This document shows, piece by piece, positions 1,161 through 55,031 of a stretch of 64,000 nucleotides of DNA (its first letter is position 1; each line of letters opens with the position of its first letter). The stretch covers positions 264,845,073-264,909,072 of the forward strand of contig CM030362.1 of the NCBI GenBank assembly GCA_017893485.1, in the 5' to 3' direction. Under the pieces are notes generated by a model that was not told the origin of the DNA, searched no databases, and saw only the letters and a list, made by a program, of their open reading frames with translations. The stretch comes from Hemerocallis citrina. Its lineage: Eukaryota; Streptophyta; Magnoliopsida; Asparagales; Asphodelaceae. The position numbers and the translations under genes were made by a program.

Positions 1161-1661
1161 AGACTTTTTCTTTTCTTTTCTATTATGTAATTTTCTTTCT
1201 TAATGTGCTTCTTTATGTATCAGACTTTATCTTAGTTTCCTTTTTAATGCAAAAGATTGTTATTTTCTGCCTTTTTGATGATAACAAAGGGGGAGAAATA
1301 TCTGTGTTATATCTGTGTGTTTATGTCTGTGTTTTATGTGTTGCTTATGTTTTGATATCCTCTCATTTGTTAACATTGTTCTATTTCTAGGTATTGAAAA
1401 ATCTCTGGTCAGTCGACTTCCCAAAGGGATACAGTCGACTGCTACTAGCTACTGCATCTGTACTTATTTTCTGCTTATGATTTTTCTAAGTATGATTTCT
1501 TGATCAGTCGCCTGCCATTTTTGATCAGTCGACTGATACATGTTACATGTTTTTAAGACAATGCATTTTGTGTTTTTAAAAGGGGGAGCATGTCTTAACT
1601 ATGCTTGTATATTATCTTTTATTATCAGCTATTGTGTTGTCATCATCAAAAAGGGGGAGAA
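1161..1661 (+). other. Sirevirus 3' spacer with three polypurine tracts
   Basis: Non-coding stretch between the extra ORF and the 3' LTR. It holds three AAAGGGGGAG tracts at about 1286-1298, 1578-1590 and 1648-1661; the last directly abuts the LTR and is the expected plus-strand primer site. Multiple upstream polypurine tracts are a known Sirevirus trait. The spacer also contains two paired GTCGAC palindromes (1410-1441 and 1505-1535). Confidence 0.8.
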
Positions 1662-2993
1662 TGTTGATTCTTGATTTTGATGATCACAACACAGTGCAAC
1701 ATGTGTCTATGTTATACAGCTAACATTTCAGGTTGTACTACAAAAGACTATTCTAGCTGAACAAATGAACAAGCTCAAAAGGATACAGATAAAGACTTCA
1801 CTCAGACAAGATCCAAGATTTCACTCAAGACAAGACTCAAGACTCAAGACTTTTAGCTCAATTATGCCAAATTATAGTGTCTTGTAAAAACAAATGTATT
1901 TTACTTTTTTGAGTCTTAGTCTGATGTAAAGCGTCTTAGTCTGATGTAAAGCCTTGTCACACACACACACTCAAAATTTCATAATGTGTCTCTTAAAAAC
2001 CCCCAAAAAGAGTCAAAACAGTTTGAAGAAATTTAACTTTTGAGTACCAGTCAACTTAAGCTTCTGCCAGTCGACTGATAGTACAAAACTGTTTAAATTT
2101 ATTCAAACTCTGATCAGTCGACTCATATGGCAATCCAGTCGACTGTTCGAGAGCTTTTGACCGTTTTTTGTTTTTCAAAATCGAATTTTTTCAAACTCAA
2201 AAGCTTAGATCCGTTGGTTGACAGTTGAGTAACTGTCTCCCAACGTTCAGGAGATCAAACTCTTTAAGTAGAGTTCAGATCTCACTGAAAAGATCTACAG
2301 AACTCTTTTTGAAAATCCGAGCAACTTTGTGAGAAAAATTCTAAGTAATTTTTTGAGAAATAAAGCTTTCAAGATCATACTCTCTGGTTCTCTACACTCA
2401 GTCCAGTATAGCAACGAATTCGCTCTGGACTGAGTATAGAAGTCGACCTATTCTTTTAGCCACGTGCATCAACACATACACCAATAAGGCTATAGGTTGA
2501 CTGTAAAGTATTCTTTGTTCTCTTGCTCTCGGTTGGAGAGTGTTTTTGACTCTAGGTTGTAGAGTCGGTTTTGTTTCACTCTTGGTAGTAGAGTGGGTCG
2601 GCTTTCTCTGGTTGAGAGAAAGGACTACGGGTTAGACAAGGTTGTTGTCGTAACGCCGTAGGGTATTCTTGTAATCTTTTTCAAGAATAGTGGAAATCTC
2701 AAGTGGGTTGTTTGGGGACTGGATGTAGGTCGGGAGGACCGAACCAGGATATATCTTGTGTACTCTGTGATTGATTATCTTGTGTTTGCATTCACTCTTG
2801 TTTATTTTAGTTCTGCAAAAAGTTTCTGGACAGTCGACTCCTTGTATCATCAGTCGACTGGTCAGTGCCGTTTGTAGTTGTAATTTCATTATGCCTTCAG
2901 TCGTCTGTCTTATTCATCAGTCGACTGCACAGAGTTATTGTTTTTAATTTATTTTGGTCATATCAGTCGACTGGTTCATAACCAAGTCGACTG
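1410..2993 (+). repeat. Paired CAGTCGACTG palindromes, Sirevirus 1
   Basis: Seven pairs of the 10-bp palindrome or a 1-2 base variant: starts 1410/1432, 1505/1526, 2048/2068, 2115/2136, 2831/2851, 2898/2918 and 2964/2984. Start-to-start distance is always 20-22 bp, while the 10-12 bp spacers have unrelated sequence. Two pairs lie in the 3' spacer and five in the LTR. In each pair the second unit is the better match. This looks like a regulatory protein-binding module; the function is inferred. Confidence 0.8.
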
Positions 2994-15496: not shown

Positions 15497-16539
15497 TCAA
15501 TCTTCATCATCTTCATCTTGGCCACCATGAGAGGGAGGAGGAAACTGAGAGGTGAACAGGTGGATAAGATGAGAAATATTTGCTTCATGAGCATCTTGAC
15601 GATTCATGAGAGCATCTTGTCGATCCATAATATAATTAACAGAAGTGTAAAGACTTCTTGGAACATCAAAATCACCACGAGGACAAGATGAACTAGAAGC
15701 AGAAGACCGACGAGCTGAAGTGGCTAAGGGGATAGGAGGTACATTCCTAGTAGGAGACCTAGGTGGAGGATTTAGCAACTTCATACGTGCTAAACTAGCA
15801 CGATCAAATGAGTCAAAGTGTTTTACAACATCTGTCTCAGATTCAAGATCAACATCATGAGCATAGAAGACGTGAGTGAGTAAAGCACCAAAGGGAAGAA
15901 ATGAAGTATGAGCCTTAGCAAGACGTTTAAAGATGACGAGACCCCAATTTATTTTAATATTGCCAAATATTGCATAAACAGATTGTTGCAACTCAAGTGA
16001 ATATTGATCATAACTCCCGATTTTGGGAATAATGTTATATGAAAATATGCGTGCAACTAGCGTAGCAATAGGAGTGATAGATCGATTGGTCATAGAAGGA
16101 CCATGATTTGGCAAATAAATTTTAGAAAAAATGGAGTCATCATGCATATCAACATCTCCTAAGTCACACCCTTCATCAGACAGATTTAAAATAAGACTTA
16201 GTCTAGCAGGGGAGATTCTCATACGTTTATCTTTAACAGACGGAAAAATAAAAATCTCATTACCATCCTCCGAAGTAGTAATCTTCATATTTGTATAAAA
16301 CAAATATATTAGGTGAGGATAGTAAGAGAGTTGATTGACAAAAGACAATAGATCTCAAACAATGGGGCTAGAGGGAACCTATCTAAATCTGAAAAATTCA
16401 CAAATCAATCCGGAAAAATGATAATGGAACAAATAATGTACCATTTATCAATGAGATTCAGTTTTCATAAATATTGAAGATAGTCTCTAGATCCTTGTCC
16501 TTCTTCTACATTAGATGAACGGGATCTTTTGGGGGCCAT
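15497..16539 (-). pseudogene. Sirevirus extra (env-like) ORF, copy 2
   Basis: Homologue of 83-1160. An ATG with the same basic start (MAPKRSR) lies at 16539; two stops and a frameshift break the first 60 or so codons. The rest is one open frame of 283 codons (16348-15497). It shares FLP/YLPNHGP, GSYDQYS, INWG, FLPFGALLTHVF and FDRASLARMKLL with copy 1, then a P/S-rich linker, a short coiled-coil-like segment and a DEDDED tail. Roughly two thirds of core residues agree by eye although DNA has diverged. No hydrophobic membrane segment. A pyrimidine tract ending TTTTTTAG lies just before the ATG, as in copy 1. Function unknown. Confidence 0.75.
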
Positions 16540-17109
16540 AACAAAAAATAGATCCTAAAAAATCAAGAGAGGGAAAGAGTTCTAAGAAGATATACCGACA
16601 AGGATGTAGCAAAGAGAAGTAAAGAACTTCAAGAGATCTTATGAGAATCACTGGAAATTGAAAGAGAACTTCAATTTGGGGTTTCAAAATCCTTGAAATC
16701 GCCAAGCAGCAGTAGCCGACTTGAGAGCTAGGTAGAGAGAGAGTTAGGGTAAAAGTGAAAGAAATGAGAGTAAAGAGTTAGGGGTTTTACTTTGAATGGA
16801 CGACTAAGATGTAAGTTAGGGAATTTCAAAGGCTCAGATCGGTCAAAGGGTAGCAGTATAGTGAAAAGAATCGCCTCAAAAGATGTGTCAATTTTCGAAT
16901 TTGAAGAATATTGATGCGCGACAGTCGACTGGTCTTAGAGGGAAGTCGACTTAGTCGAGAGCAAAATAAACAAGCGAACATAGCACTAATACAACTAGTC
17001 AGTCGACTGGGTACTCTGTACAGTCGACTGTCTAGAACATAAAACTCAAACAAAAACTTAGAAAAATAAAGATACTTGGTAGTCGACTGAAAAATACTTG
17101 TAAGTCGAC
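16540..17109 (-). other. Spacer between Sirevirus 2 pol and extra ORF
   Basis: No credible gene. On the coding strand it contains three paired palindromes immediately after the pol stop (starts 16922/16943, 17000/17021 and 17080/17102). The stretch 16540-16700 is leader-like, ending in the acceptor-like tract before the extra ORF. Confidence 0.6.
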
Positions 17110-18120
17110 TTACCAGAGAAAAATTTTAAAAACATCATGAAAACTACAAATCCCTAGTTCTGTCCTTAAGGTGATAAATGTGTCTTCCTTAAGGGATTTG
17201 GTAAAGATGACAGCTACCTGTTTATCAGTAGAAATAAAGTCTAAAGAAATGTCTCTCTTTAAAACATGATCACGTAAACAATGATGTCGAATATCAATAT
17301 GTTTCATACGTGAGTGTTGAACCGGATTTTTAGATAATTTAATGGCACTGGTATTATCACACATTATTGAAGGTTTTTCAAATGAAATACTATAGTCTAA
17401 TAGGGTTTGTTTCATCCACAAAATTTGGGCACAAGCCAAACTTGCAGTGATATATTCAGCTTCTGTAGTAGATAGGAATACCGAATTTTGCTTCTTACTG
17501 CACCAAGAGACTAGTGAATGTCCCAAAAAGTGACATGTCCCACTAGTGCTCTTGCGGTCAGTTTTACTACCGGCAAAATCCGCATCACTATATGACAAAA
17601 GTTGAAAGTTATCGGTACGTGGATAAAATAGACCATATTCAGACGTCCCTTTAAGGTATCTTAAAATACGTTTCACAGCTTTTAAGTGAGACTCTTTAAA
17701 ATTTGACTGATATCTAGCACACAAACATACACTAAATATAATGTCCGGTCTACCAGCAGTTATATATAAGAGTGAGCCAATCATACCTCGATAGAGTTTC
17801 TGATCGACACTCTTACCTAATTCATTTTTGTCAAGGGTAGTGGTAGTAGCCATAGGTGTGGTCTTACTACTCGTGCTATCCATGTTAAACCGTTTGAGTA
17901 ATTCCTTAGCATATTTTCCTTGATTAATAAATATGCTATTATGTGACTGCTTAATTTGTAGTCCAAGAAAATAATTGAGTTCACCCATGTGACTCATTTT
18001 TCATGGTGTTAGCAAACTCTTGATATAGATTACTATTAGTAAAACCAAAAATTATGTCATCTACATATATTTGTATGATCAAGATATCTGTCTCTATTTT
18101 CCTAATAAACAAGGTAGTGT
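17110..18120 (-). pseudogene. Sirevirus 2 RT end and RNase H
   Basis: Carries the RT catalytic YVDDIIFG at about 18030-18075, then GELNYFLGLQI, YRGMIGSLLYITAGRPDI, SDADFAGSKTDRKST, STTEAEY, CDNTSAI and HIDIRHHCLRD, the copia RNase H set. A TGA/frame break just before 17997 separates YVDD from the 295-codon open frame that ends at 17110. Upstream, one base is missing at the junction near 18121, shifting the frame from the main RT. RNase H acidic residues are present. Confidence 0.85.
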
Positions 18121-19428
18121 CTACTTACCTATTTCAAAACCCATTTCTAAAAGAAAAGTCTTCAATCGATCATACCAAGCACGTGGTGCTTGTTTAAGAC
18201 CGTATAAAGCCTTTTTCAATTTAAAAACGTGGTTTGGAAATTGTTCATGTTCGAAACCTGGTGGTTGTTTAACATAAACATCTTCCTTTATAAAACCATT
18301 AAGGAATGCACTTTTAACATTCATTTGAAAGAGTGTAAAATTTATAAAATATGCAAAAGATAATAAGATACGGATTGATTCTAATCTAGCAACAGGAGCA
18401 TATGTTTCATCAAAATCTATGCATTCTTCTTGATTATACCCTTGAGCAACTAGTCTAGCTTTGTTCCTAACAACTTGTCCTGATTCATCTAACTTATTCT
18501 TGAATACCCATTTCGTACCAATTATAGTATGATCAGGAGGTCGTGGAACTAAATCCCATAAATCATTTCTTATGAATTGGTTTAACTCATCTTGCATGAC
18601 ATTCATCCAAAATTCACTCTCACACGCATCTTGTATATTCTTCGACTCAAAATCGGACAAGAAAGCTGTGTGAGATATCATGTTAACATGTGATCTTGTC
18701 TGAATACCATGTGAAATGTCACCAATTATTAAGTCATGTGGATGATCTCTAACTTCAACAAAAGACTTTGGTAAAGTTGGAGACATCACAATAGGATCAG
18801 TTGACTTGACCAATTCATCAGTCGACTGATTTATAGCAGTTGACTTGACTTCCTTATCGGTTGACTTGACTTTCTTATCGGTCGACTTATCAGCAAGGCT
18901 AGTTTTCTTTAAAGATGTAATTACTTTATTTAAAGGTGATGAATCAGTTTCATCATCTTCAGTTAAAGTCGATGAAGACAGAGATTCATCAAATGCAACA
19001 TGCATGGATTCTTCAATAGTCATTGTTGACTTGTTGAAGATTCTATTTGCCTTACTCTTATATGAGTATCCTACAAAGATACCCTCATTAGATCTAGGAT
19101 CAAACTTATCTAAATTATTCTTAGTGTTCAGAATAAAACACTTACATCCAAATATTTTAAAGTAAGAGAGCTTAAAAATTCTATCAAAAAATAGCTCATA
19201 ACATATTTTCTTTAACTTAGGCCTAATCAAAATTTTATTTAAAACATAACAAGCTGTAGCAACGGCTTCAGCCCAAATATACTTAGGTAAATTGCTTTCA
19301 ACAAGCATGGTACGTGCACATTCTTGCAAAGTCCTATTCTTCCTTTCAACCACTCCATTTTGTGGTGAAGCTCTAGGAAATGCAAACGAATGAGTTATAC
19401 CATTCTTGTTGCAATATTCTGCAAACAT
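18121..19428 (-). pseudogene. Sirevirus 2 integrase C-terminus and RT
   Basis: Open for 435 codons. Integrase catalytic Glu is in [17 protein letters not shown], followed by FGCKCF and GIFVGYS. A low-complexity linker (about residues 190-225) is a 7-residue STDxxVK repeat created by 21-bp phased palindromes. RT follows: [69 protein letters not shown]. The motif A Asp is replaced by Asn ([10 protein letters not shown]), which should abolish catalysis. A one-base loss after FEIGK ends the frame. Confidence 0.85.
18798..18888 (-). repeat. 21-bp phased palindromes inside pol linker
   Basis: Palindrome-like units start at 18798, 18819, 18837, 18858 and 18879, 21 bp apart except for one 18-bp step. 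On the coding strand they are read as K-S-T-D, giving a 7-codon peptide repeat between integrase and RT. Some carry TTGAC for TCGAC, a C-to-T change at the CpG. Confidence 0.75.
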
Positions 19429-20444: not shown

Positions 20445-20795
20445 TCATACATATTTACTCTGTCCAGTCGACTTTACAGCACCTTTCAGTCGACTTTTAC
20501 TGTTATTCAGTCGACTGGGAGGTAGTATAGGTCGACTTATCTGAGGTATTTGTCTCGTTGAATGAGACTCAGTACCTCTGGACAGGCGACTGATATGTAG
20601 ATTTAGTCGACTGGTCTGAACTGTAGATTTGCCTTTTTCATAAAAAGTTATAGTTTTAGGTTTTTCAAAAAACTCATAAAGTTTATTTTTAACACTAGAA
20701 ATAGATACAAATTTGTTTACACTAGTGTTCTTAGAAGAATGAGATTTTTCAAGGGACTTTTTAAAACCAAGACCAAACTTCTGATTATATTGCAT
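20445..20795 (-). pseudogene. Sirevirus 2 gag C-terminal linker with palindromes
   Basis: Open 116-codon frame rich in S, R and K. The palindromes at 20465, 20487, 20508, 20529 and the pair 20583/20604 are read here as S-R-L or S-R-P, a different frame from the pol linker. Four of them are in near-perfect 21-22 bp phase. Linked to gag (20998-21711) through a stop-containing stretch at 20796-20997. No conserved protein domain recognised. Confidence 0.65.
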
Positions 20796-21738: not shown

Positions 21739-22102
21739 TGTTGGATCCTGTAGGCAAGGCAAGAAACACTAGAAGGGGGGTGAATAGTGTTTTATAAAAA
21801 ATTAATTGCAAAATTAAAAATTATCTTCTGTTCAGTCGACTGTAAAAGGAAGTTCGGTCGACTGAGGCATCAGAGTAGAAGAGTATTTTGATACTAGTCT
21901 GATAAGTCGAATTAATACAGAAAGGCAATCGACTTGCAAGAAGAGTTTCTGAGAAGATTGTAGTACCATTCTGATCAGTCGACTTAAGATGGGAATACAG
22001 TCGACTTACCAGAACGGTTTTGAGAGAATTGAAATGCAAATAATAAAAGGTTCAAGAGATACAACCACAGAAATTCCAACCACAAAGTACACACGATATA
22101 TC
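21739..22102 (-). repeat. 5' LTR of Sirevirus 2, truncated
   Basis: Matches the first part of 13675-15121 from TGTTGGATCC up to GATATATC at about 22102. Beyond that the sequence belongs to LTR-2 (AGATCTAATC...), so about 1.1 kb of LTR and some LTR-2 sequence were deleted together. Its homopolymer is only 6 G (21775-21780). Confidence 0.85.
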
Positions 22103-31599: not shown

Positions 31600-33928
31600 T
31601 CACACAACTTGCTCTCGCGACAAACCTTTAGTAAATGGATCCGCTAGGTTGTCGGCTAATTTTATATACTCTATAGAGATTACTCCATTTGAGAGCAGTT
31701 GTCTAATAGTTTTGTGTTGCCTTCTGATATGACGGGACTTACCATTATACATACAACTCAGTGCCCGTGCTATAGCCGATTGGCTATGTGTACACATAAA
31801 GCGGGCACTGGTTTTTCCCATATAGGAATATTCTCTAAAAAGTTTTAAAGCCATTCTGCTTCCTCTACCGCTTTGTCTAAAGAAATAAACTCAGATTCCA
31901 TGGTGGATCTGGCCAATAACAATTGTTTAGAGGATTTCCATAACACAGCTGCACCACCAAGTGTGAAGACATACCCACTTGTGGATTTTGAGTTCCTGGA
32001 GTCCGATATCCAGTTGGCATCACTGTATCTTTCTAGTGCTGCTAGATATCTGGTGTAATGTAGCGCATAACTCTGAGTATGTCGCAAGTAGTTCACTACT
32101 GTAGTTATTCCTTTCCAGTGACTTCGTCCTGGATTACTTGTGTAGCGGCTCAGTACATTTACTGAATGTGCTAGGTCCGGTCTTGTACAATTTGTTAAGT
32201 ACATCAGACTACCGACTACACGTGTATATTCCAGTTGTGATATGCTATCACCCATGTTTTTTAACAATTGAAGACTAGGATCCACAGGACTTTTAGCAGT
32301 TCCATTCGAGTAATTCTTGAACCTTTCAAGTACTTTCTCAGTATAATGAGCTTGAGACAAAGTAATTCCCTCAGACGTCCTGGAAACTTTGATTCCAAGT
32401 ATGACGTCTGCAAATCCCAAATCTTTCATATCAAACTTGCCACTAAGCATGCTCTTAGTTTGTTTGATAATGTCATTACTGCTTCAAATAATGAGCATGT
32501 CATCTACATACAGACACACCAGAATGTATCTATTTGGAGTATCTTTGATGTAGATACACTTATCACATTTATTTATTTTGAAACCATTTGACATCATAAC
32601 ATTATCAAATTTTGCATGCCACTGCTTTGGAGCTTGTTTCAGTCCGTATAGGGATTTTACATGCCTGCACACCTTGTTTTCCTGTCTAGGAACTACGTAA
32701 CCCTCAGGTTGTTTCATGTATATTTCTTCTTCTAAGTTTCCATTTAGAAATGCAGTTTTAACATCCATTTGATGTATTTCCAGGTTACGTAGAGCTGTAA
32801 TAGCTATCAACATTCTTATGGAAGTTATTCTTGTAACTGGGAAATATGTATCAAAGAAGTCTAGGCCTTCCTTTTGCCTAAATCCTTGTACCACAAGTCT
32901 CGTCTTATGCTTCTCTATTGAACCATCTGGTTTTAATTTTTATTTGAAAATCCATTTGCATCCTAGAGCTTTATATCCAGAAGGTAAATCGACTAACTCC
33001 CATGTATGATTTTGTATAATGGAGTCTATTTCACTTTTGATTGCTTCCTTCCACATTGGAGAATCAGGCATAGACATGGCTTCCTTGAAAGTTCTGGGCT
33101 CATTCTCTAACAGAAAGGCCGTTACAAAGTCAGGACCAAATGATTTTAATGTTCTAGCCCGTTTACTTCGTCTAGGCTCATCATTATCATGTTCTGGTTC
33201 ATCAACCAAAGTGCTTTCATTCCCTTGTTCAAGTGTACGTTTGGGATACGTAGTATCCTTGCACGGAAACACGTGTTCAAAGAAGGAACCATTCCTTGAT
33301 TCCATTATTGTATTCACATGGATATCCGGTATATCTGATTTTTATACCAAGAACCGATATACACTACTGTTGTGTGCATAGCCTATGAATATGCAATCAA
33401 ACGTCTTAGGTCCTATGGTGACTGGTTTTGGATTAGGTACTGCCACTTTTGCTAGGCACCCCCACACTTTGAGGTATTTATACGAAGGTACGTTACCTTT
33501 CCACAGTTTGTATGGTGTCTTGCGAGTTTTCTTGTGAGGTATTTTATTAAGAATATAGTTGGTAGTCAGCAACGCTTCCCCCCACATGTTTTGGGGTAAG
33601 CCAGAATTCAACAACAAGGCATTCATCATCTCCTTTATAGTTCGGTTCTTGTGCTCGACAGTACTGTTTGATTCGGGTGAGTAAGGAGCAGTTGTCTGAT
33701 GATCAATTCCATGTTCAAAGCAGAACATATTAAATGGTGCATCATATTCTCCTCCTCTATCACTCCTAACAATTTTAATCGGTTTGCCAAGTTGATTCTC
33801 AACCTCAAGCTTATATTCTTTGAATTTATCCAAAGCTTCATTTTTGCTATGTAACAAGTATACATAACAGAATTTTATGCAGTAGTCTATGAATGTCACA
33901 AAGTAAGTTTTGCCACCTCTGGTAGACA
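31600..33928 (-). pseudogene. Tork-like pol: integrase core, RT, RNase H
   Basis: One frame from 33929 down to 31845, with stops near 33342, 32940 and 32484, then a frameshift into the last 84 codons (31854-31600). Integrase: VTFIDYC, VRSDRGGEYD (second Asp), SPESNSTVEHKNRT (Glu). RT: QMDVKTAFLNG with its Asp intact, YGLKQAPKQWH and YVDDMLII. RNase [55 protein letters not shown]. The catalytic residues survive better than in Sirevirus 2 although the gene is broken. Confidence 0.85.
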
Positions 33929-36914
33929 TGTAGTACCCCGTATTTTTAAATATAATTTTAAAGATTTATAAATGAAATTAAAATGATTTTTTTGGAGATT
34001 TAATAAATATTTTCATAAGATTTACCTTTTTTACACGTGCAAATATTTTCTTGGAAAGTTCAAAAGGCAAAATTATTTTGTGGAAAATCATTATTTATTA
34101 TTCGAGATTATTTATAATTTTTCTAGATTTTTCTGATATTTATTAGACCTATTTGCAAATATTACGAAAAAGAATGATCTTTTTGCAAAATTGTCATTTT
34201 GAAGGATGAAAGTGCAAAACTATTTTCTAGACTTTTCAAACAGTGCCGGCTGGAAAATAAGGTTTTTATTTTGTTTTTAAAACTCAATTTAATTGGTTTT
34301 ATCAAGTTTCCAAGTATAGGGATCTATTTATGTAAAGTTATACTTTAAAAGGGTTATTTTGCAAATGTGTTCAAAAACCCTAATTCTCCTATTCCGGCCT
34401 ATTTAAAAGAGTGAAGTGCAGTCATCTTTCGCTGCACAACACAAAGGTTTTATTATTTCTTGGAGATTTAAGGAGGTGATCTTGGATTTCGCAAAAAAAG
34501 GCTTTCCTTATTAGATTTCTTCATTTGAGGTGAGTATCTTGTTTTGTTTTCTTTTTGTTTTGTGTATGTCGTATGCGAGTGATATAATTTGTTTTGTTTT
34601 ATTCTTGTAATGTTTTATGTGGTATTTCATCTACTAGAAAGCATGTTAGGGTTTGATTATGAATATGTACATGATGGATTGGATGGATTGATAAATTAAA
34701 AATTGATCTTTTATGAACCCTAATTATCTATGGATAGATTTGCATGTGGACGATGTGAGTTCTTATTATCATTGAGTTTGGATGAGCACATCTTGATTAT
34801 AGAAATGTTAGATTTGTTCATGTTCATGAGTTAATAATGGTGATTGAGTTTGAGGAAATTTTGAGAAGGACTAATGAATTAGGAGATCATGTCTCGAGAA
34901 TCAGATTTGAGATAAATTGGATTGAGTTTGATGAATACAACTAAATTGGGGATCTTTTGAGGTTTTGGTATTGATATAGTTTGGATCTGAATATGAAGCT
35001 ATTTCGATGAACAATTAATTTGTAAGAAAACTCTATTTTTGTTTATTTGCACAATTCATGTTTGATTGAAAGAAATTAACAACTCGCTATTTTTTATAAA
35101 TTCAAGTAGTTTTAATTTAGTTCTTATGGACGATTATATATCCTATAAGTTGTATTTGAACAAATAAGAAATATGCTTTCGATAGAAATCGTTTTCATAA
35201 AGTAAAACTAGGTATCGGTTGAAATATACACAACCAAAATCTGCAGTCTGCAGGTCGACAATCGACCAGTGTGACTTTCCAGTCGAACATCGTTGCCTGG
35301 CTGCTGTAATTTTCTTGAAGCTTTTAAATTATCACGCGGAACAGTCGACTGATTCATCTTTACACTCGACTGAGTCTGCTCCATTTTTAATGTCACCCTG
35401 AGAATTGGATTTTTTCTCTGGGACAGTCGACCTATGACCTTTTACAGTCGACTGCTATATTTACTATTATTTTCTTAAAGATTATTGGATTTATCGCTCT
35501 GGACAGTCGACCTATGACCTTTTAGAGTCGACTTATAATACTTAGAATTATTTTCTCAAAGCTATTGGATTTTCTCTCTGGACAGTCGACCGATGGGTTT
35601 TGTAGTCGACTGATACTGATATATCTATATATATTTTAATGTTCTTTTAAATGATTTATCCTCTAAATGTTTTTAATCTATAACTTACTATTCTATATTT
35701 TATCTTCTACTGAACATATGTTTTCAAGTGAGTTAAATGAGCAATTTATGTTGGAAGTTTTGTTTGGATATTTGGGTGTGAGTCTCTAGAGGGTGTGTGT
35801 GACCCTAGTATACCGGCAGTTGAGATATTTATGTTTGGGCCTGTTGAGGCATTTTAATTGACCAGTTATTGAGTTAAGTCCGGTAGGGTATGCCAACTCT
35901 AGGAGATTTGTAAAGTAATCAAATAACATAATTGATAAGGACATGCACTAGTGGTGATATGATGAACGAGAACATGGGTTATGGATCTCAGTATGGCTCA
36001 TGGTGTGAGATAATCCCCCGAATTATTCCGGTGTAAGTGAAATAGTCTCCGGAATTACCTGTGGTGTGGGATTGATCTCCAGAATTATCGGGGTTGAGGC
36101 GACGCACATGTGGTATTCGTGTGATTAGGTGCCATTGCTTGCAGTGTGGAGTATTCTCGAATACTCCCAGGTGTGAGTGAAATAGTCTCCGGAATTATCT
36201 GTGGATAGAGATTGACGTCCGGAATTATCGGGATATGAGCTAATACTCACAGTTTATCTTTATCTCGTAGTAGTCATCGTGTTAGGATTAGTTGCATAGC
36301 GGGGGATTTAAACCCTACAATGTGGAGACGTTAAGGGCTTGCACCTATGTAGAGTGGGATGCATAGTCTCCGACAAGTACACATTAGAGAGTCAGCATAT
36401 AGAATTGTGTTTTCTTGAGTTGGTTTCATACATGTGTTTTTCTTGTTTTCTACACTTGACACTTAGTCTAGTTTCACTTGATGTTTTCGTGTTTCCTTGC
36501 TATGTCAAATTTTACGTTTTCTTGTTTATTTCATGTCGTTTATGATTCTATGCTTTACTGATGTTGTTTATTTTTATGTCACTCACACCATTATGGCTGA
36601 CCCCTTTAGTTTTGGGGGTTAGGATTATCTCTAGCCTCATATTTTACAGGTGATTACTTGTAAATTGTGATTTGGATGCATGAGTTAAAGTGGTGTAATG
36701 GGTTATGTAATTTGTAAAAGAAATTGTTGTAAGGAAAGAAAATTTGTAATTCAAGGTGTATTGTATTCCGTTGTGCTATGTAAAGATTAATGTAATGAAA
36801 GTTGAAATTTTTTTTTATTGGTAGTTGGCTGTGGTTAATATTACATTTGAAGTGGATGCTGGGAATTGTGCCACGTATTTCTAAGATATCATATTAAAAA
36901 TTTGGGGCGCTACA
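33929..36914 (+). repeat. 5' LTR of Tekay element
   Basis: TGTAGTACCCCG to GGGGCGCTACA. TATTTAAAAG at about 34401-34410 is a TATA candidate, followed by GAAGTGCAG and a leader. It contains five paired GTCGAC palindromes (35259-35612), a CCGGAATTA repeat block (about 36013-36232) and a GGGGGATTTAAACCCT block near 36300. No coding domain. Confidence 0.9.
35259..35612 (+). repeat. Paired CAGTCGACTG palindromes, Tekay 5' LTR
   Basis: Pairs start at 35259/35280, 35342/35363, 35424/35445, 35504/35525 and 35583/35603: spacing 20-21 bp, as in the Sireviruses. Each pair lies in a loose 60-80 bp unit (GGATTTTTTCTCTGG before the first member, ATACTTAGAATTATTTTCT after the second). LTR2 shows less eroded versions. 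Confidence 0.85.
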
Positions 36915-37120
36915 GAGATTGGTATGAGAGCATGCTTCAATTGTAATAATAAACATGGTATAAAAATAACCTAGGTGTGGACACTAGAGCGTGAGTACCT
37001 AGGTGTGGACATTAGAGAGTGAGTATCACATAGAACTGAAACATGCTGTTTTGGGGTATTGATGTGAATATGAATTGTATTGTGATGCTCTAACTCTTCC
37101 CTCATTTTGCAGTATTCAGA
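36915..37120 (+). promoter_or_regulatory. Tekay primer site and leader
   Basis: TGGTATGAGAGC (36920-36931) follows the LTR and matches an initiator tRNA-Met primer site with one mismatch. The leader has a 28-bp direct duplication (ACCTAGGTGTGGACA...) at 36969-36996 and 36997-37024. Gag begins at 37121. Confidence 0.8.
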
Positions 37121-38177
37121 ATGGTTGGACCCAGAACTAGAAATGGTAACAATGGTGATGGGGTTGGAAGTTCCCAAGGAACAGGAGTTGATCTCGAGGC
37201 CGAATTTGCCAGGGTGTATCAGACTTTGAATGCACTGATGGTAGCTAATTTAGCGCAAAATCAGAACCAGAATCAGAATCATAGGGCTGGACCAGGGTTT
37301 GTTAATGCTGATCCTATCAAGCAGATTGAGTCCTTTAAGAGGATGAGGCCGCTCTTGTTTGAGGGGAAGTCTGATCCAAATGAGGCTGATGATTGGATTA
37401 GACGGATGGAGACAATCTTCGAGGTCTCAAAAACTTCGGCAGCTAACAAGGTGAAGTTGGCCACTATGCAGTTGGAAAATGATGCTGGTGTTTGGTGGCA
37501 AACGGTAAAGAGGACTTTGGGGGACCAGCAAATGACTTGGGAGGCTTTTCTAGAAGAATTCAGAGATCGTTTCTTTCCCCTGGATATTTAGGAGAAGAAG
37601 GCGACAGAGTTCTTGAATCTACAGCAAGGCAGCATGACCGTGTGAGAGTATGAGACTAAGTTCGCTCAGCTGTCAAGGTATGCACCGGAGCTGATAGTTG
37701 ATGAGGCGAAGAAGGCCAAGAAGTTTGAGCAGGGCTTGAGGCCAAACTTGAGGTCGAGAATGATTCCTTTGGGCACAAGGAGGTTCGATAAGCTGGTCAG
37801 GAGAGCAGCTATGACAGAGAAAGACCTGGATCAGTTCCAGAAGAAGCAAGAGACCTGGAACAGGAACAAAATGCCAGCATCAGGTCAGAGTGGGAAGGGA
37901 TTCCCAGCGAAGCAAGTTAAGTTCAGTGGTCCAGTGCAGAAGGCACCTGCAACACAGGAAGTGACTTGTTACTACTGCAAGGAGGCAGGTCATTACAGGT
38001 CATCGTGTCCTATGTTAACGAAGCAGACTTGTTTCCAGTGTGGGCAGGCAGGACATTCTAAGCCTCATTGTCTGCAGTTGAGGAAGGATGGTCCAGGCGG
38101 AGGTAAATTCCAGAGGCAATGGCGAGTGTTCGCATTAACTGAGGAGGATGCAAGTAACTCGGAAGATGTGATCCAGG
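37121..38177 (+). pseudogene. Tekay gag
   Basis: ATG at 37121, one frame with two premature stops: TAG 37589-37591 (after FFPLDI) and TGA 37643-37645 (after GSMTV). Capsid-like blocks: GKSDPNEADDWIRRME, WWQTVKRT, TWEAFLEEFRDRFFP, FAQLSRYAPEL, KFEQGLRPNLR. Two intact CCHC knuckles follow: CYYCKEAGHYRSSC and CFQCGQAGHSKPHC. Translation without splicing would end at TAA 38183-38185, but the frame probably enters an intron at 38178. Binds and packages element RNA in the family. Confidence 0.85.
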
Positions 38178-38275
38178 GTATGTAAGATTTTTGATTTTAT
38201 TTTTTTAATCAATGTAATAAGTAAAACTTTTATTTGAGAATAATTGGAGATTGAGTATCATTCTTCATGTAACAG
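38178..38275 (+). other. Putative 98-bp intron between gag and protease
   Basis: Begins GTATGTAAG, ends TTCTTCATGTAACAG, is very AT-rich and holds stops in all frames, unlike the coding sequence on either side. Removing it joins gag (CAG G) to GA ATT GTC so that reading passes from gag into the protease region in register, apart from one missing A in the run at about 38304-38308. Length suits a minimal plant intron. Splicing is inferred, not shown. Confidence 0.65.
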
Positions 38276-41200
38276 GAATTGTCTTGGTTAATGGAATTAA
38301 GGCAAAATTTTATTTGATACTGGTTCTTCGCATACTTTTGTGTTGCCCAATTTTGCAAAGGTCTTAGGTGTGGAGCCTAAGTTGTTCCCAGGCAAGGTTT
38401 TGTCGGTGGCAACGCCGTCAGGTGAAGAATTGACTGCTGATCGATATTACGAAGGCTGTGATATCGAGATTGGCGGGAAATTGTTCGGCATTGATCTGAT
38501 TGAGCTGCAAGTCTTAGGAGTAGATGTGATCGTGGGCATTGATTGGATGGCAATATATGAGGCCATAATTGAATGCAAGCAGAAAGAGGTGTTAGTGAAA
38601 GCACCAGGTGGTCCCGTAGTGACTTTCCGAGGGAAGAAGAAGGTTCCGAAGGTGGCTGCAATGGTATCCAAGATGGCGATTCCAGATGAAGTCAAAGGCA
38701 TTCCAGTTGTCAGACATTTTTCTAAGGTGTTCTTGGAAGATTTGCCAGGATTATCACTGCAGAGAGATGTGGAGTTTTGCATCAATGTTCAGCCGGGGAG
38801 TGCTCCGATTTCTAAGGCTCCGTACAGGATGGCACCTGTAGAGCAAGACGAAGTGAAGAAGCAGATTGAGGAGTTGTTGAGCAAAGAGCTTGTTAGGCCT
38901 AGTTCCTCACCGTTGGGTGCGCCAGTGTTGTTACTCAAGAAGAAGGATGGGTTAATGAGGATGTGCATTGACTACCAGGAGTTGAATAGGGTAACTATTC
39001 AAAACAAGTATCCACTTTTGCGGATTGATGATTTGTTCGACAGGCTTTAGGGAGCAGCTATGTTTTCGAAGATTGATTTGAGATCAGGGTATCATCAGGT
39101 TCAAGTCAAGGAGGAAGATGTGAGTAAGACAGCTTTAAGGACTCGTCATGGGCTCTATGAGTTTTTGGTAATGCCATTCGGGTTGACGAATGCGCCAGCC
39201 ATGTTCATGGATATGATGAACTGGATTTTGAGGCCATTTATTGACTCCTTCGTAGTGGTCTTCATCGACGATATTTTAGTGTATTCGAAGTCGGAGGAGG
39301 AGCATTCTATGCACTTGATAGCGGTATTACAGAAATTGCAGGAGCATAGCTTGTATGCCAAGTTGTCGAAGTGTGTGTTTTGGAAGTTTCAGGTAGCTTT
39401 CCTTGGTCATATCCTTTCTAAGGAGGGAGTGGCCACTGATCCTCAAAAGGTGGAAGCAGTAAAGGATTGGCCTGGGCCAACGTCTGTGAAGGAAGTCAGG
39501 AGTTTCTTGGATTTGGCTGGTTACTACAAGAGATTCATCCAAGGTTATTCTCAAATTGTAGTTTCTTTGACAGGCTTGACCCGGAAGAATGTGGCATTTT
39601 CATGGACTGATAAGTATGAGGCAATTTTTCCTGAGTTAAAGGAGATGTTGACTACTGCACCTATCTTAGCTTTGCCACAAGCTGGGAAGGACTATGATAT
39701 CTTCAGTGATGCATCTCTTAGAGGTTTGGGTTGTGTCTTGATGCAAGAAGGCAAGGTTATTGCTTATGGTTCGAGGCAATTGCGTCCGCATGAGAAGAAT
39801 TATCCGACGCATGATTTGGAGCCAGCAGCTATTATCTTTACCTTGAAGTAGTGGAGGCATTATGTTTATGGTGAGAAGGTCAACATGTACACTAACCACA
39901 AGAGCCTGAAGCACATTTATCAACAGAAGGATCAACAGAAGCACATTTATCGGCAGAGAAGATGGTTGGAAGTATTGGAAGACATTCCTCCTGAGATCAA
40001 GTATCATCCGGGCAAGGCGAATGTGGTAGCTGATGGACTTAGCAGGAAGAGTAGTTTATCAAGTTTGATCACTACTCGAAGAGAGCTGGCAGCAGAGATT
40101 GATCAAGCAGGTATCGAGGTGGTGCTGTAGGGTTTGGGGGCGTCTTTGGCTCAGATGAGGCTGCAGCCTTCCTTGAGAGAGAGGATTGTGGAAGGTTAGA
40201 GATCAAATTCAGAGATTCAGAAGATGTTGCAACAAGTTTCAGAAGGCAAGCTATCAGAGTTTCGTGTCCAAGATAGAATTCTATGGATGGGTGAGAGGTT
40301 GTGTGTTCCGGATAATGCGGATTTGAGAGAGAGTATCTTGCAGGAAGCACACAATACCTTATTGTCAGTACATCCTCGAGGCATAAAGATGTACAAGGAC
40401 ATCAAACAGTACTTTTGGTGGTCTGGTATGAAGAGGGATGTGGCAGATTTCATAGCAAGGTGTCTGACTTGTCAGCAGATCAAAGTAGAAAATCAGAGAC
40501 CTAGAGGTTTGTTACAGCCGTTGCCCATTCCGGAGTGGAAATGGGAGAATATCAGTATGGATTTCATCACGGGTTTGCCGGGGAGTTCGAAGGGCAATGA
40601 CTCGATTTGGGTTATTGTGGACCGTTTGACTAAGTCGGCTCACTTTCTGGCCATGAAGATTACTTGGTCGTTGGAGAAATTGGCTGAGTTGTACATTGGT
40701 GAGATTGTGAGGCTTTATGGAGTTCCTGTGTCGATTGTTTCCGACAGGGATGCAAGGTTCACTTCAAGGTTTTAGAAGAGCCTACAAGCAGCTTTGGGCA
40801 CCAGAACCGACTCCAGTACCGCTTTTCATCCACAGACTGATGGTCAGACTGAGAGGGTGAATCGAGTGCCCGAAGATAAGCTGAGGGCTTGTGTTATGGA
40901 TTTTGGTGGTGGCTGAGAGAGATACTTGGCATTGGTTGAGTTTCCTTATAACAACAGTTACCATGCGAGTATCGGGATGGCGCCGTATGAGGCTTTGTAC
41001 GGGCAGAGGTGCAGGACACCTGTTTGTTGGTACGAGGTTGGCGAGAGGCAGATGTTTGGTCCTAAGATCGTGCAGCAGACGTCAGAGCAGATCGAGCTAA
41101 TTCGCAAGAGGTTGGTTAAGGCTCAGAGTCGGCAAAAGAGTTACGCTGATACTCGACGAAGGGACTTGGAGTTTGAGGTTGGGGATGTAGTTTTCCTTAT

Positions 41201-41597
41201 GGTGTCTCCGACCAAAGGAGTGATCAGGTTTGGTAAGGGAGGCAAGTTGGCGCCAAGGTATATTGGGCCATACACGATCATGGAGCGGGTTGGTAGGACT
41301 GCATATAGGTTAGAGCTTCACGAGGAGTTGGCACGGGTGCATAATGTGTTCCATGTGTCATTGTTGAGGAAATATGTGCCAGATCAGAATCAACAGTTGG
41401 TAGAGGTTCCTGAAGGTCTACAGGTGAACTTGAGTTACAAGGAACAGCCTGCGAAGGTCGTCAACCGAAGGGAGAAAGTTCTTAGGCGTAAAGTGATACC
41501 TATGGTCAATGTGCTGTAGAGGAATCAGCAGTTCGAGGAGGCTACTTGGGAGCCAGAGGATCGCATGCAGAAGGATTTTCCTAAGCTTTTTGTATGA
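38276..41597 (+). pseudogene. Tekay pol: protease, RT, RNase H, integrase, chromodomain-like end
   Basis: Single frame from 38313 to the TGA at 41595-41597, broken only by stops at 39048, 39849, 40128, 40197, 40773, about 40914 and 41517. Protease [40 protein letters not shown] and FIDDILVYS; RNase [11 protein letters not shown] and YHPGKANVVADGLSRK with a small HIYQQKD/HIYRQR duplication; integrase zinc set (VHPRGIKMY...CLTCQQIK), [31 protein letters not shown]; then GPKIVQQ and a terminal EEATWEPEDRM typical of chromovirus integrase tails. One-base deletion near 38305. Nonfunctional but catalytic residues are retained. Confidence 0.9.
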
Positions 41598-41798
41598 TTG
41601 TATCTTATTTGTGTAATGGTATTTCTTTGGATGATTGTACTATTGGATTGAGTTGTAATTCTTTTGTTTGATTATGTCCTTCTATGTGAATGTTTTGAAT
41701 TATGGTTCATTCATGAAATTTCAATTTCTTTGTTTATTCTTGTTTTGGACCCCATTAGCAATAGTTCTGAGGACAGAACTCTTCTAAGGAGGGAGTGA
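41598..41798 (+). promoter_or_regulatory. Tekay 3' spacer and polypurine tract
   Basis: Short T-rich 3' untranslated stretch; AAGGAGGGAGTGA at 41786-41798 abuts the LTR start and is the expected polypurine primer. Confidence 0.8.
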
Positions 41799-44786
41799 TG
41801 TAGTACCCCGTATTTTTAAATATAATTTTAAAGATTTATAAATGAATTAAAATGATTTTTTTGGAGATTTAATAAATATTTTCATAAGATTTACCCTTTT
41901 TACACGTGCAAATATTTTCTTGGAAAGTTCAAAAGGCAAAATTATTTTGTGGAAAATCATTATTTATTATTTGAGATTATTTATAATTTTTCTAGATTTT
42001 TCTGATATTTATTAGACCTATTTGCAAATATTACGAAAAAGAAGGATCTTTTTGCAAAATCGTCATTTTAAAGGATGAAAGTGCAAAACTATTTTCTAGA
42101 GTTTTTAAACAGTGCCGGCTGGAAAATAAGGTGTTTATTTTGTTTTTAAACCTCAATTTAATTGGTTTTATCAAGTTTCCAAGTATAGGGATCTATTTAT
42201 GTAAAGTTATACTTTAAAAGGGTTATTTTGCAAATGTGTTCAAAAATCCTAATTCTCCTATTCTGGCCTATTTAAAAGAGAGAAGTGCAGCCGTCTTTCG
42301 CTGCATAACACAAAGGTTTTATTATTTCTTAGAGATTTAAGGAGGTGATCTTGGATTTCGCAAAAGAAAGGCTTTCCTTATTAGATTTCTTCATTTGAGG
42401 TGAGTGACTTGTTTTCTTTTCTTTTTGTTTTGTGTATGTCGTATGCGAGTGATATAATTTGTGTTTTTTTTATTCTTGTAATGTTGTATATGGTATTTCA
42501 TCTACTAGAAAGCATGTTAGGGTTTGATTATGAATATGTACATGATGGATTGGATAGATTGATGAATTAAAAATTGATCTTTTATGAACCCTAATTATCT
42601 ATGGATAGATTTGCATGTGGACGATGTGAGTTCTTATTATCATTGAGTTTGGTTGAGCACTTCTTGATTATAGAAATGTTAGATTTGTTCATGTTCATGA
42701 GTTAATAATGGTGACTGAGTTTGAGGAAATTTTGAGAAGGACTAATGAATTAGGAGATCATGTCTCGAGAAATGGATTTGAGATAAATTGGATTGAGTTT
42801 GATGAATACAACTAAATTGGGGATCTTTTTGAGGTCTTGGTATTGATATGGTTTAGATCTGAATATGAAGCTATTTCGATGAACAATTAATTTTTAAGAA
42901 AACTCTATTTTTGTTTATATGCACAATTCATGTTTGATTGAAAGAAATTTACAAATCGCCATTTTTTATAAATTCAAGTAGTTTTGATTTAGTTCTTATG
43001 GACGATTATATATCCTACAAGTTGTATTTGATCAAATAAGAAATATGCTTTTGATAGAAATCATTTTCATAAAGTAAAACTAGGTATCGGTTCAAATATG
43101 CACAACCAAAATTTGCAGACTACAGGTCGACAGTCGACCGGTGTGACTTTCCAGTCGACCGTCGCTGCCTGGCTGCTGTAATTTTCTTGAAGCTTTTAAA
43201 TTATCACGCGGAACAGTCGACTGACTCATCTTTACAGTCGACTGAGTCTGCTCCGTTTTTAATCACCCTGAGAATTGGATTTTTTCTCTGGACAGTCGAC
43301 CTACAACCTTTTACAGTCAACTGCTATACTTAGAATTATTTTCTTAAAGATTATTGGATTTATCGCTCTGGACAGTCGACCTATGACCTTTTAGAGTCGA
43401 CTTATAATACTTAGAATTATTTTCTCAAAGCTATTGGATTTACTCTCTGGACAGTCGACCAATGGCTTTTGTAATCGACTGATACTGATATATCTATACA
43501 TATTTTAATATTATTTTAAATGATTTATCCTCTAAATGTTTTTAATCTATAACTTACTATTCTATATTTTATCTTCTACTGAACATATATTTTCCGATGA
43601 GTTAACTGAGCAATTTATGTTGGAAGTTTTGTTTGGATATTTGGGTGTGACTCTCTAGAGGGTGTGTGTGACCCTAGTATACCGGCAGTTGAGATATTTA
43701 TGTTTAGGCCTGTTGAGGCATTTTAGTTGATCAGTTGTTGAGTTAAGTCTGGTAGGGTACGCCAACTCTAGGAGATTCGTAAAGTAATCAAATAACCTAA
43801 ATAATAAGGACAGGCACTAGTGGTGATATGATGAACGAGAACATGGGTTATGGACCTCAGTATGGCTCGTGGTGTGAGATAATCCCCGGAATTATCCAGG
43901 TGTGAGTGAAATAGCTTCCGGAATTACCTGTGGTGTAGGATTGATCTCCGGAATTATTGGGGTCGAGACGACGCACATGTGTTATTCGTGTGATGAGGTG
44001 CCATCACTTGCGGTGTGGGGTATTCTCGAAGACTCCCAGGTGTGAGTGAAATAGTCTCCGGAATTATCTGTGGATAGAGATTGACCTCCGAAATTATCGG
44101 AGCATGGGCTAATACTCACAGTTTATCTTTATCTCGTAGTAGTCATCGTGTTAGGATTAGTTGCATAGTGGGGGATTTAAACCCTACAATGTAGAGACGT
44201 TAAGGACTTGCACCGGACCTATGTAGAGTGGGATGAATAGACTCCGACCAGTACGCATTAGAGAGTCAGTATATAGAATTGTGTTTTCTTAACTTGGTTT
44301 CGTGCATGTGTTTTTCCTGTTTTCTACACTTGACACTTAGTCTAGTTTCACTTGATGTTTTCGTGTTTCCTTGTTATGTCATATTTTACGTATTCTTGTT
44401 TATTTCATGTCGTTTATGATTCTATGCTTTACTTATGTTGTTTATTTTTATGTCACTCACACCATTATGGCTGACCCCTTTAGTTTTGGGGGTTAGAGTT
44501 ATCTCTAGCCTCATATTTTACAGGTGATTACTTGTAGCTTGGAATTTGGGTGCATGAGTTAAAGTGGTGTAATGGGTTATATAATTTGTAAAAGAAATTG
44601 TTGTAAGGAAAGAAAATTTGTAATTCAAGGTGTATTGTATTCTGCTGTGCTATGTAAAGATTAATGTAATGAAAGTTGATTTTTTTTTATTGGTAGTTGG
44701 TTGTGGTTAATATTACATTTGAAGTTGATGTTGGGAATTGTACCACGTATTTCTAAGATATCATATTCGAAATTCGAGGTTCTACA
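41799..44786 (+). repeat. 3' LTR of Tekay element
   Basis: TGTAGTACCCCG to GAGGTTCTACA; same order of elements as the 5' LTR. Paired palindromes start at 43131/43152, 43214/43235, 43293/43314, 43373/43394 and 43452/43472. The CCGGAATTA units start at about 43886, 43918, 43948 and 44058, spaced near 30-32 bp within groups. The terminal bases differ from the 5' LTR end (GGGGCGCTACA), so either end has mutated. Confidence 0.9.
43131..43481 (+). repeat. Paired CAGTCGACTG palindromes, Tekay 3' LTR
   Basis: Five pairs with 20-21 bp spacing. The first is CAGTCGACCG twice, the second perfect CAGTCGACTG twice. Positions match those of 35259-35612 one for one. Confidence 0.85.
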
Positions 44787-54300: not shown

Positions 54301-55031
54301 AAGCAGAATTTGTGGTGATACCTGACTTGGAAATTGGAATGCAGCGCAATCGGGACGTGATCAGAAGAAGGATTAGGGAGAGCCTGGACAAAAGACTGAT
54401 GGAAACGCGCTACCCAACTCTGAGAAACCAGGAAACGATCGAGTTTGGCAAGCGTTGGAGGATCTCGTTGGTTGGACCAGGTAAAGGACCTACCGGAAAT
54501 AGGAAAATCCGATAGTTGCAGTATCCGAATACAATCATTGAAGAGACAAGATTGTGTGTTAGAGGAGACTGGGTTCGATCTTTTGGAGACAAAACGAGTG
54601 ACATTAAAGTCTCCACAAAAAAAGCAGAGGGTGCTGGAGAGTTGCTGCAACGATCGAAATTCGTTCCAGAATAAAGGACGTCTTTCAGAGGAAGAAGGAC
54701 CATACACTGAAACCACAGTCAGTGGGCAATTAATAAACGTCCAATAGAGATGGACAATGAGGAAGAAGTTAAGACGTTGGACAGCTATAAGCGAGAAGAG
54801 GGCTTCCTTGAAACCGAAAAGAATCCCTCCCCTTGAGCCAACCACGTCCAAAGAAATCCATTTGGAGATAGTGGAACCTCCTAAGGAACGAAGGGTCGCA
54901 AGGGAGGGAGATTCTAATTTGGTTTCCTGAATGGAAATCAAGTCGCAATGGGAAGAGGAAATTAAGTCAAAAATCGCCATTTGCTTAGAAGGGCAATTCA
55001 AACCTCGGATATTCCAGGAGACACTAATCAT
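51387..55031 (-). pseudogene. LINE ORF2: endonuclease and reverse transcriptase
   Basis: Best start is ATG 55031, inside the ORF1 stop context (ATGATTAG); the frame is open from 55109. One frame to 51387 with two stops, TAG at 52335-52337 and TGA at about 51765. AP endonuclease: SWNIRGLNC, QETKLES, GDFNV, SDHVPIAL. RT: FRPISLINTSFKI, KLDFQKAYDNVNW, GLRQGDPLS, but the catalytic box reads YADN, not YADD. C-terminal zinc-binding region: FSVKSFYCFL, WDSCAPLKVKITSWLAF, CSF...HLFIQC. No RNase H domain. The Asp-to-Asn change and stops make it inactive. Confidence 0.9.

What the first reader, a model, noticed from the sequence alone, without database searches (positions are those of the whole stretch)
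35259..43481. The same paired palindrome in the LTRs of an unrelated Tekay gypsy element
Five pairs per LTR, 20-21 bp apart, with the same CAGTCGAC(T/C) core, in a Ty3-gypsy element that shares no other sequence with the copia elements. Convergent use or exchange of one cis module between superfamilies suggests a common host or element-encoded binding factor.
Basis: partly seen in the sequence, partly recalled or inferred. Interest (0 to 1): 0.9.

Follow-up and report, generated by a model that had tools for sequence, protein, structure and literature searches.

The report
Shared paired DNA switch in retrotransposons
Three unrelated groups of jumping genes in one large plant genome carry the same paired 10-letter palindrome, kept by selection and in two groups found even inside protein-coding parts, which points to a DNA-binding protein that all of them use.

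Summary
The Tekay-like gypsy element (window 33928-44774) has five palindrome pairs per LTR, 20-21 bp apart; the first 5' pair is degraded. This is far from chance: CAGTCGACTG-N0-30-CAGTCGACTG has 78,481 matches in this 3.78 Gb genome against 1 for the backwards control; 73 of 78 listed are spaced 20 or 21 bp.

Pairs occur in three lineages: copia, Tekay-like, and a second, Athila-like gypsy group. With palindromes masked these share almost nothing. GTCGAC cores are kept better than other CpG hexamers. In copia and Athila-like elements pairs also lie in open frames between protein domains, read in three frames, partly as in-frame inserts missing from relatives. Selection is therefore on nucleic acid; the spacing suggests paired protein dimers.

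Candidate factor: the copia-encoded PF20167 protein (dN/dS 0.18-0.28). A PF20167 lineage 21-22% identical carries another palindrome, CGGTCGACCG, paired at similar spacing (9,989 against 2) and seldom mixed with the first. Binding and function are untested; a host factor remains possible.

The parts
33928..36902 (+). 5' LTR of the Tekay-like Ty3-gypsy element
   Evidence: 94.7% identical to 41798-44774
41798..44774 (+). 3' LTR of the same element
35259..35289 (.). 5' LTR pair 1, degraded (3+3 mismatches), spacing 21
35342..35372 (.). 5' LTR pair 2, spacing 21
35424..35454 (.). 5' LTR pair 3, spacing 21
35504..35534 (.). 5' LTR pair 4, spacing 21
35583..35612 (.). 5' LTR pair 5, spacing 20
43131..43161 (.). 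3' LTR pair 1, spacing 21
43214..43244 (.). 3' LTR pair 2, both palindromes exact, spacing 21
43293..43323 (.). 3' LTR pair 3, spacing 21
43373..43403 (.). 3' LTR pair 4, spacing 21
43452..43481 (.). 3' LTR pair 5, spacing 20
37094..41516 (+). gag-pol region of the element: protease (RVP_2), reverse transcriptase, RNase H, integrase C-terminal SH3_Tf2-1; a TAG stop lies before a chromodomain-like tail; no palindrome within two mismatches inside
1410..2993 (.). palindrome clusters of copia copy A
351..1157 (+). PF20167 extra ORF of copia copy A, 269 aa open
   Evidence: 41.3 bits, curated cut-off 45; 87% identical to L034
13784..14726 (.). palindrome clusters at the 3' side of copia copy B
15500..16354 (-). 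PF20167 extra ORF of copia copy B, 285 aa open, candidate binding factor
   Evidence: 43.2 bits, cut-off 45; dN/dS 0.24-0.28 against the three other copies
16922..17111 (.). palindrome cluster between the end of the copia pol ORF and the PF20167 ORF
18798..18888 (-). palindromes inside the copia integrase-RT linker, read as KSTD/QSTD (one exact, the others with 2 mismatches)
20465..20613 (-). palindromes inside the copia gag-protease linker, four read as SRL and one as KST
21833..22007 (.). palindrome cluster upstream of copia gag

Best explanation
The module is a composite DNA-binding site. Each 10-bp palindrome would hold one symmetrical protein dimer, and two palindromes about two helical turns apart (20-22 bp) would bind two dimers on one face of the helix. 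Selection for this site has kept and multiplied it in three LTR-retrotransposon lineages (copia, Tekay-like, Athila-like), in LTRs and, in copia and Athila-like elements, also in-frame between protein domains. The most likely binder is the PF20167 ('Transposase_32') protein encoded by the copia elements beside these clusters. It would act in trans on any element that carries the site, as an activator or an anti-silencing factor comparable to VANC of Arabidopsis VANDAL transposons; the Tekay element of the finding would be a user that does not encode it. Shown: the pairs, spacing, lineages, conservation, coding insertions, a conserved PF20167 ORF, a second palindrome in a diverged PF20167 lineage. 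Inferred: protein binding (about 0.85), that PF20167 is the binder (about 0.4), anti-silencing rather than plain activation (about even).
For: Count and geometry: 78,481 matches against 1, 73 of 78 listed at 20-21 bp; in the sequence held, 78 nearest-neighbour distances fell at 19-22 and none at 11-18 or 23-27 (one at 18 came later in L034). Conservation: GTCGAC kept 48/66, 130/154 and 158/193 in Tekay-like, Athila-like and copia alignments against 42/424, 272/686 and 126/384 for other NNCGNN hexamers; same direction without loci from my motif searches. Nucleic acid rather than protein is selected: pairs in ORFs are read as QST/KST, SRL or VD; L026 and L031 inserts keep the pair while little else aligns, and L032 and L006 lack both inserts. 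PF20167: dN/dS 0.18-0.28 in six comparisons of four copies, palindrome clusters on both sides of it in L034. L035-L037 held few CAGTCGACTG; asking whether their diverged PF20167 goes with another motif, I found CGGTCGACCG, 20 of the 22 copies in held sequence. That palindrome pairs at 20-22 bp in 42 of 50 listed places (9,989 against 2); mixed pairs total 3,758 against 55,998 under free mixing, 17 of 100 listed at 19-22 bp. Of 16 palindromes with the GTCGAC core only CA (106), CG (22) and AA (13) flanks are frequent; the other 13 total 1.
Against: No binding, expression or methylation data. PF20167 was not found in the Tekay-like or Athila-like sequence held, much of it partial. The match of motif to PF20167 lineage rests on two lineages (L035-L037 are related to each other), and I framed the question after seeing that CAGTCGACTG was sparse there. 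Rarity of mixed pairs may only reflect that the two palindromes live in different families. The two specificities are not clean: L035 and L036 each hold one exact CAGTCGACTG, and half-and-half palindromes such as CAGTCGACCG occur, the window Tekay included; of 101 held pairs 79 are A/A, 4 G/G, 17 involve a half-and-half palindrome, 1 is other, none is A/G. Both structure predictions failed (pLDDT 36), so no DNA-binding fold is shown. L011 has two CGGTCGACCG with no PF20167 match in its 10 kb. L024 and L006 have no pairs, so the site is not essential. Four of the six dS values exceed 1.
Confidence: 0.45

Rival explanations
1. The pairs are sites of a host transcription factor (for example a stress or germline factor), acquired independently by several LTR lineages as enhancers, in the way heat-shock elements were acquired by Brassicaceae COPIA families.
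For: Recurrent gain of host-factor sites in LTRs is documented (PMC5059998, abstract read). The Tekay-like element has the pairs and no PF20167 match was found in the Tekay loci held. A host factor explains sharing across superfamilies directly.
Against: Pairs inside pol and gag linkers and clusters beside the PF20167 ORF are not expected of a simple LTR enhancer. The second palindrome in the diverged PF20167 lineage needs a second host factor of related specificity and similar pair spacing.
Confidence: 0.35
2. The pairs act in RNA: palindromes serve genomic RNA dimerisation or packaging, or each pair folds as a hairpin with a 10-11 nt loop.
For: Palindromes are self-complementary, and many lie in coding parts that are transcribed. 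The selection shown by the three frames is on nucleic acid, DNA or RNA.
Against: Spacing is nearly fixed at 20-22 bp, which an RNA loop does not require. End changes rarely compensate across the two palindromes: of 106 end pairs in 53 non-redundant pairs, 46 changed on one side and 3 on both, 2 of these complementary; within a palindrome 4 changed on both, all complementary, and 44 on one. The numbers are small, so this is a weak test.
Confidence: 0.06
3. The pairs are binding sites of a host silencing factor that tracks these elements; the elements carry them passively.
For: They lie in repeats that a host would silence.
Against: Elements gain from losing such sites, yet the core is kept far better than its surroundings and pairs appear as in-frame inserts present in some relatives and absent in others.
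Confidence: 0.07
4. The pair is a small mobile or recombinogenic repeat that spreads by itself, like palindromic elements inserted in bacterial genes (recalled).
For: In-frame inserts with pairs and a run of four palindromes exactly 21 bp apart in L021.
Against: Spacers and flanks differ widely among pairs, and the inserts of L026 and L031 align at the palindromes and little else, so there is no conserved body to copy.
Confidence: 0.05

Closest known systems
VANC anti-silencing proteins and their motifs in Arabidopsis VANDAL transposons (PMC5735166, passages read; PMC10398659, abstract and outline read)
   Same: Dense short motifs, often in tandem repeats, specific to TE families; related proteins with changed motifs; one motif (VANC6) also in AT9TSD1, which is not related to VANDAL.
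   Different: Here LTR retrotransposons of three lineages; a paired palindrome with nearly fixed spacing; motifs also inside coding sequence; no protein shown to bind and no methylation data.
Heat-responsive elements gained repeatedly in Brassicaceae COPIA LTRs (PMC5059998, abstract and outline read)
   Same: The same kind of site gained in several LTR families.
   Different: Those are heat shock factor sites within LTRs of COPIA families; here copia and two gypsy lineages, coding sequence as well, factor unknown.
PF20167 additional ORF (Transposase_32) of a sunflower Athila, with a predicted nuclear signal (PMC11728184, passages read)
   Same: The same Pfam family as an extra ORF of a plant LTR element.
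   Different: Here downstream of pol in copia elements, or after a gag-like ORF in a second copia-related lineage (L036), with palindrome clusters beside it; the passages read give no target motif.
DOWN motif of the MAIN/MAIL1/PP7L pathway (PMC9899485, PMC7156037, passages read)
   Same: A motif tied to TE-derived plant mobile domain proteins.
   Different: It is written CATGCAGTTT for the MORC1 promoter; it is not this palindrome.

Membership tests
Tekay-type chromovirus (the element of the finding) | Ty3-gypsy pol with protease, RT and RNase H | tested here: met
   RVP_2, RVT_1, RT_RNaseH_2 and RT_RNaseH hits
Tekay-type chromovirus (the element of the finding) | type II chromodomain at the integrase C-terminus | tested here: inconclusive
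   SH3_Tf2-1 found; a chromodomain-like tail follows a TAG stop; recognised from recall, no Pfam Chromo hit
Tekay-type chromovirus (the element of the finding) | RT places it in the Tekay clade of a reference tree | not tested
Athila (third lineage, L026 and relatives) | Ty3-gypsy gag-pol, distinct from Tekay, without chromodomain | tested here: inconclusive
   Retrotrans_gag, RVT_1, RNase H, Integrase_H2C2 and rve hits; RT 38% identical to the window element. No chromodomain hit, but Pfam missed the one in the Tekay element too, and the L026 ORF ends within the integrase
Athila (third lineage, L026 and relatives) | RT in the Athila clade; Athila-type primer site | not tested
   the TTTTTGGCGCCG stretch after the LTR recalls Athila primer sites; recall only, so called Athila-like
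VANC-type anti-silencing system | TE-specific dense short motif, often tandem | tested here: met
VANC-type anti-silencing system | element-encoded protein that binds the motif | not testable with these tools
   PF20167 is a candidate by position and conservation only
VANC-type anti-silencing system | loss of DNA methylation on targets | not testable with these tools
   no methylation data
VANC-type anti-silencing system | motif changes with the protein lineage | tested here: inconclusive
   two PF20167 lineages, two palindromes; only two lineages sampled
PF20167 (Transposase_32) | Pfam gathering score of 45 bits | tested here: met
   L034 64.4 and L036 72.5 bits; window copies 41.3 and 43.2, below the cut-off; the 150 genome matches scored, of 4,620 first-look candidates, are listed as over it

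The most novel reading that the evidence does not exclude
A retrotransposon-encoded trans-acting DNA-binding protein (PF20167) recognises a paired palindrome that unrelated LTR lineages have adopted, in two of them even within coding sequence, so that one element's factor serves several superfamilies as a public good. At least two versions with largely separate specificities coexist (CAGTCGACTG and CGGTCGACCG), in which like pairs with like.
Probability: 0.35. Interest if true: 0.92.

Novelty: new variant of a known kind. Interest (0 to 1): 0.82.

Why it matters
From general knowledge, plant LTR retrotransposons are usually explained by host factors acting on their LTRs. A cis site shared by three lineages, found in coding sequence too and tied to an element-encoded protein, would be a cross-family regulatory system. 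It gives a concrete role to test for PF20167 proteins, whose family of extra ORFs is said to have unknown functions in the paper consulted (PMC11728184, passages), and makes it testable how element families exploit or defend such a factor.

Tried and rejected
DOWN motif of MAIN/MAIL1: checked because those proteins are TE-derived; its sequence differs. Local copia fragment inside Tekay: rejected by masked BLAST; before masking, copia 17023-17123 matched the Tekay array at 71%, E 4e-11, and that region gives no hit once masked. RNA hairpin: little sign of compensation, a weak test. Protein-level selection: rejected by three reading frames. Structure of the PF20167 ORF: two predictions, both about pLDDT 36, so no fold search was made. 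Homologues of the window PF20167 ORF in the protein collection: 911 candidates, none at E 0.001; whether that collection holds plants is unknown to me. Genome-wide count of single CAGTCGACTG and of a CTGTCGACAG control pair: not completed, machine busy; replaced in part by counts in held sequence. Literature: searches listed no paper that I recognised as describing this motif in plants; I saw listings and opened few papers, and only open-licence PMC papers are held. PMC9016345 is not held.

Caveats: L001-L004 and L025-L033 were chosen because they hold or lie between exact pairs, which favours conservation. Comparisons are not independent. The stretches taken at fixed steps come from three contigs only. 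Pattern counts are of exact matches, and a listing shows only the first places of one contig.

Full report
Observation. The finding lies in a Ty3-gypsy element whose LTRs are window 33928-36902 and 41798-44774, 94.7% identical. Its internal ORFs match protease RVP_2, RVT_1, RNase H and SH3_Tf2-1; a chromodomain-like tail follows a TAG stop (recognised from recall). Each LTR has five palindrome pairs, spaced 21,21,21,21,20 bp, with successive pairs 79-83 bp apart; the first pair of the 5' LTR is degraded to 3+3 mismatches. CAGTCGACY has 70 matches in the window, both strands counted, against 0.46 expected; exact CAGTCGACTG lies at 22 sites.

Genome-wide. The window lies in a genome of 3,775,421,867 bases in 701 contigs; it is plant-like by its elements, and I could not name the species. 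CAGTCGACTG-N11-CAGTCGACTG has 24,525 matches (control read backwards: 0), and with a gap of 0-30 bp 78,481 (control 1). Of 78 listed places 51 are spaced 20, 22 are spaced 21, and 5 otherwise. In 20 stretches of 10 kb taken at fixed steps on three contigs, CAGTCGACTG occurs 18 times in 4 of 20 stretches (control 0), and with up to one mismatch 49 times in 7 of 20 (control 3). It is the commonest palindromic 10-mer there after the two TA repeats; palindromes of the same composition average 0.13.

Which elements carry it. The 18 exact copies lie in three lineages: 1 in a Tekay-like LTR (L022), 5 in copia (L018), 12 in a second gypsy lineage (L015, L021). That second lineage has Retrotrans_gag, RT, RNase H and integrase, its RT is 38% identical to the window element, and its primer site recalls Athila; I call it Athila-like. 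Five further elements, chosen because the same pair recurs 7.6-9 kb apart in the listing, were Tekay-like (L029, L030, L033) or Athila-like (L031, L032) by the 4 kb fetched between the pairs. Not all relatives carry it: L024 (Tekay-like, RT 75.6% identical) and L006 (Athila-like) have no pair even with three mismatches per palindrome in the 10 kb held. Among the stretches with LINE, other copia or other gypsy matches, L005, L007, L008, L010, L012, L017 and L020 have no copy within one mismatch, L014 has one and L011 two, none exact.

Sharing without shared sequence. With palindromes masked, six copia regions against the Tekay LTR leave hits of 37 and 26 bp (E 8e-4, 0.003); the Tekay LTR and copia A against L026 leave none, and copia B against L026 leaves one of 62 bp (E 0.005). 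Spacers and flanks differ widely among 49 non-redundant pairs; only a weak outward TC(T/G)G remains. This fits independent gain or very old presence better than recent exchange.

Selection. In alignments, GTCGAC is kept in 48/66 (Tekay-like), 130/154 (Athila-like) and 158/193 (copia) comparisons, other NNCGNN hexamers in 42/424, 272/686 and 126/384. Without loci from my motif searches, the window copies included: 6/9 against 14/70, 10/13 against 14/41, 92/114 against 106/220. By column, palindromes are 0.906 identical against 0.701 within 40 columns and 0.812 further off in Athila-like LTRs, and 0.841 against 0.680 and 0.646 in Tekay LTRs. Comparisons are not independent, and the Tekay one is small.

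Inside coding sequence. In Athila-like L026 pairs sit in open frame near the gag start, in the protease-RT linker and in the RNase H-integrase linker; in copia, palindromes sit in the gag-protease and integrase-RT linkers. The same 10-mer is read as QST/KST, SRL or VD. In the protease-RT linker L026, L031 and L021 have palindrome-bearing inserts that L032, L006 and L025 lack; in the RNase H-integrase linker L026 and L031 have one that L032 and L006 lack (other loci not compared there). L026, L031 and L032 have open frames through both linkers. The inserts of L026 and L031 align at the palindromes and little else. I cannot tell gain from loss. Selection is therefore on nucleic acid. The nearly fixed spacing of about two helical turns favours DNA bound by protein; end changes show little compensation across the pair, a weak test against RNA pairing.

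Candidate factor. The copia elements encode an extra ORF of PF20167 downstream of pol. It is an open frame of 370 codons in L034, and four copies show purifying selection (dN/dS 0.18-0.28 in six comparisons, four with dS above 1). It has a basic stretch near its start and an acidic end, and palindrome clusters lie on both sides of it. The genome search scored 150 of 4,620 first-look candidates, all listed as over the Pfam cut-off. PF20167 occurs also in a sunflower Athila extra ORF with a predicted nuclear signal (PMC11728184, passages). Four PF20167 loci were fetched. L034 is of the first copia family. L035-L037, 21-22% identical to it in this protein, held few CAGTCGACTG; I then asked whether they have another motif. 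GGTCGACC is their most enriched 8-mer, and they hold 20 of the 22 CGGTCGACCG in the 349,124 bases held; the other two are in L011. L035 and L036 also hold one exact CAGTCGACTG each. L036 has a gag-like ORF before PF20167 with no pol between them.

Second palindrome. CGGTCGACCG pairs have 9,989 matches (control 2), 42 of 50 listed at 20-22 bp. Mixed pairs total 3,758 (control 0), against 55,998 if the two mixed freely, and 17 of 100 listed are at 19-22 bp. Among the 16 palindromes with a GTCGAC core the held sequence has CA 106, CG 22, AA 13, AT 1 and twelve with none. Half-and-half palindromes exist, the window Tekay included: of 101 held pairs at 19-22 bp 79 are A/A, 4 G/G, 17 involve a half-and-half palindrome, 1 is other and none is A/G. 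So pair geometry is similar while one base per half-site changes, and like mostly pairs with like. Family structure alone could also make mixed pairs rare.

Reading. I take the pair as a composite site for a dimeric protein (about 0.85). PF20167 is my first candidate (about 0.4), a host factor the main rival (0.35). Function is open: VANC-like anti-silencing is suggested by distribution over the element body and by motif change with protein lineage (compare PMC5735166, passages), but there are no methylation, expression or binding data here.

Noticed in passing
window 11129-13674 and 22705-25289: A direct repeat of about 2.6 kb, 78.7% identical, flanks the copia B region; its relation to the copia LTRs is unclear.
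   Followed up: partly
window 52335-56819: Minus-strand ORFs of 924 and 528 aa; the first matches Exo_endo_phos and RVT_1, so a LINE; the second has no Pfam hit.
   Followed up: no
L027: Two Tekay-like LTRs only about 570 bp apart, with an internal array of about 152-bp repeats.
   Followed up: no
L036 984-3778: Gag-like ORF (24% identical to a copia gag over 188 positions) followed by a PF20167 ORF with no pol between: possibly a non-autonomous copia relative.
   Followed up: partly
L005: TTTGCAAA occurs 7 times, three pairs at 21 bp, in a stretch with another gypsy RT; it could be a simple repeat or another paired site.
   Followed up: no
window 6960-8012: Tandem arrays with 59- and 116-bp units outside the elements studied.
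   Followed up: no
L011 7645-7798: Two CGGTCGACCG and one CAGTCGACCG, two of these 21 bp apart, in a stretch with only a distant copia match and no PF20167 match.
   Followed up: no
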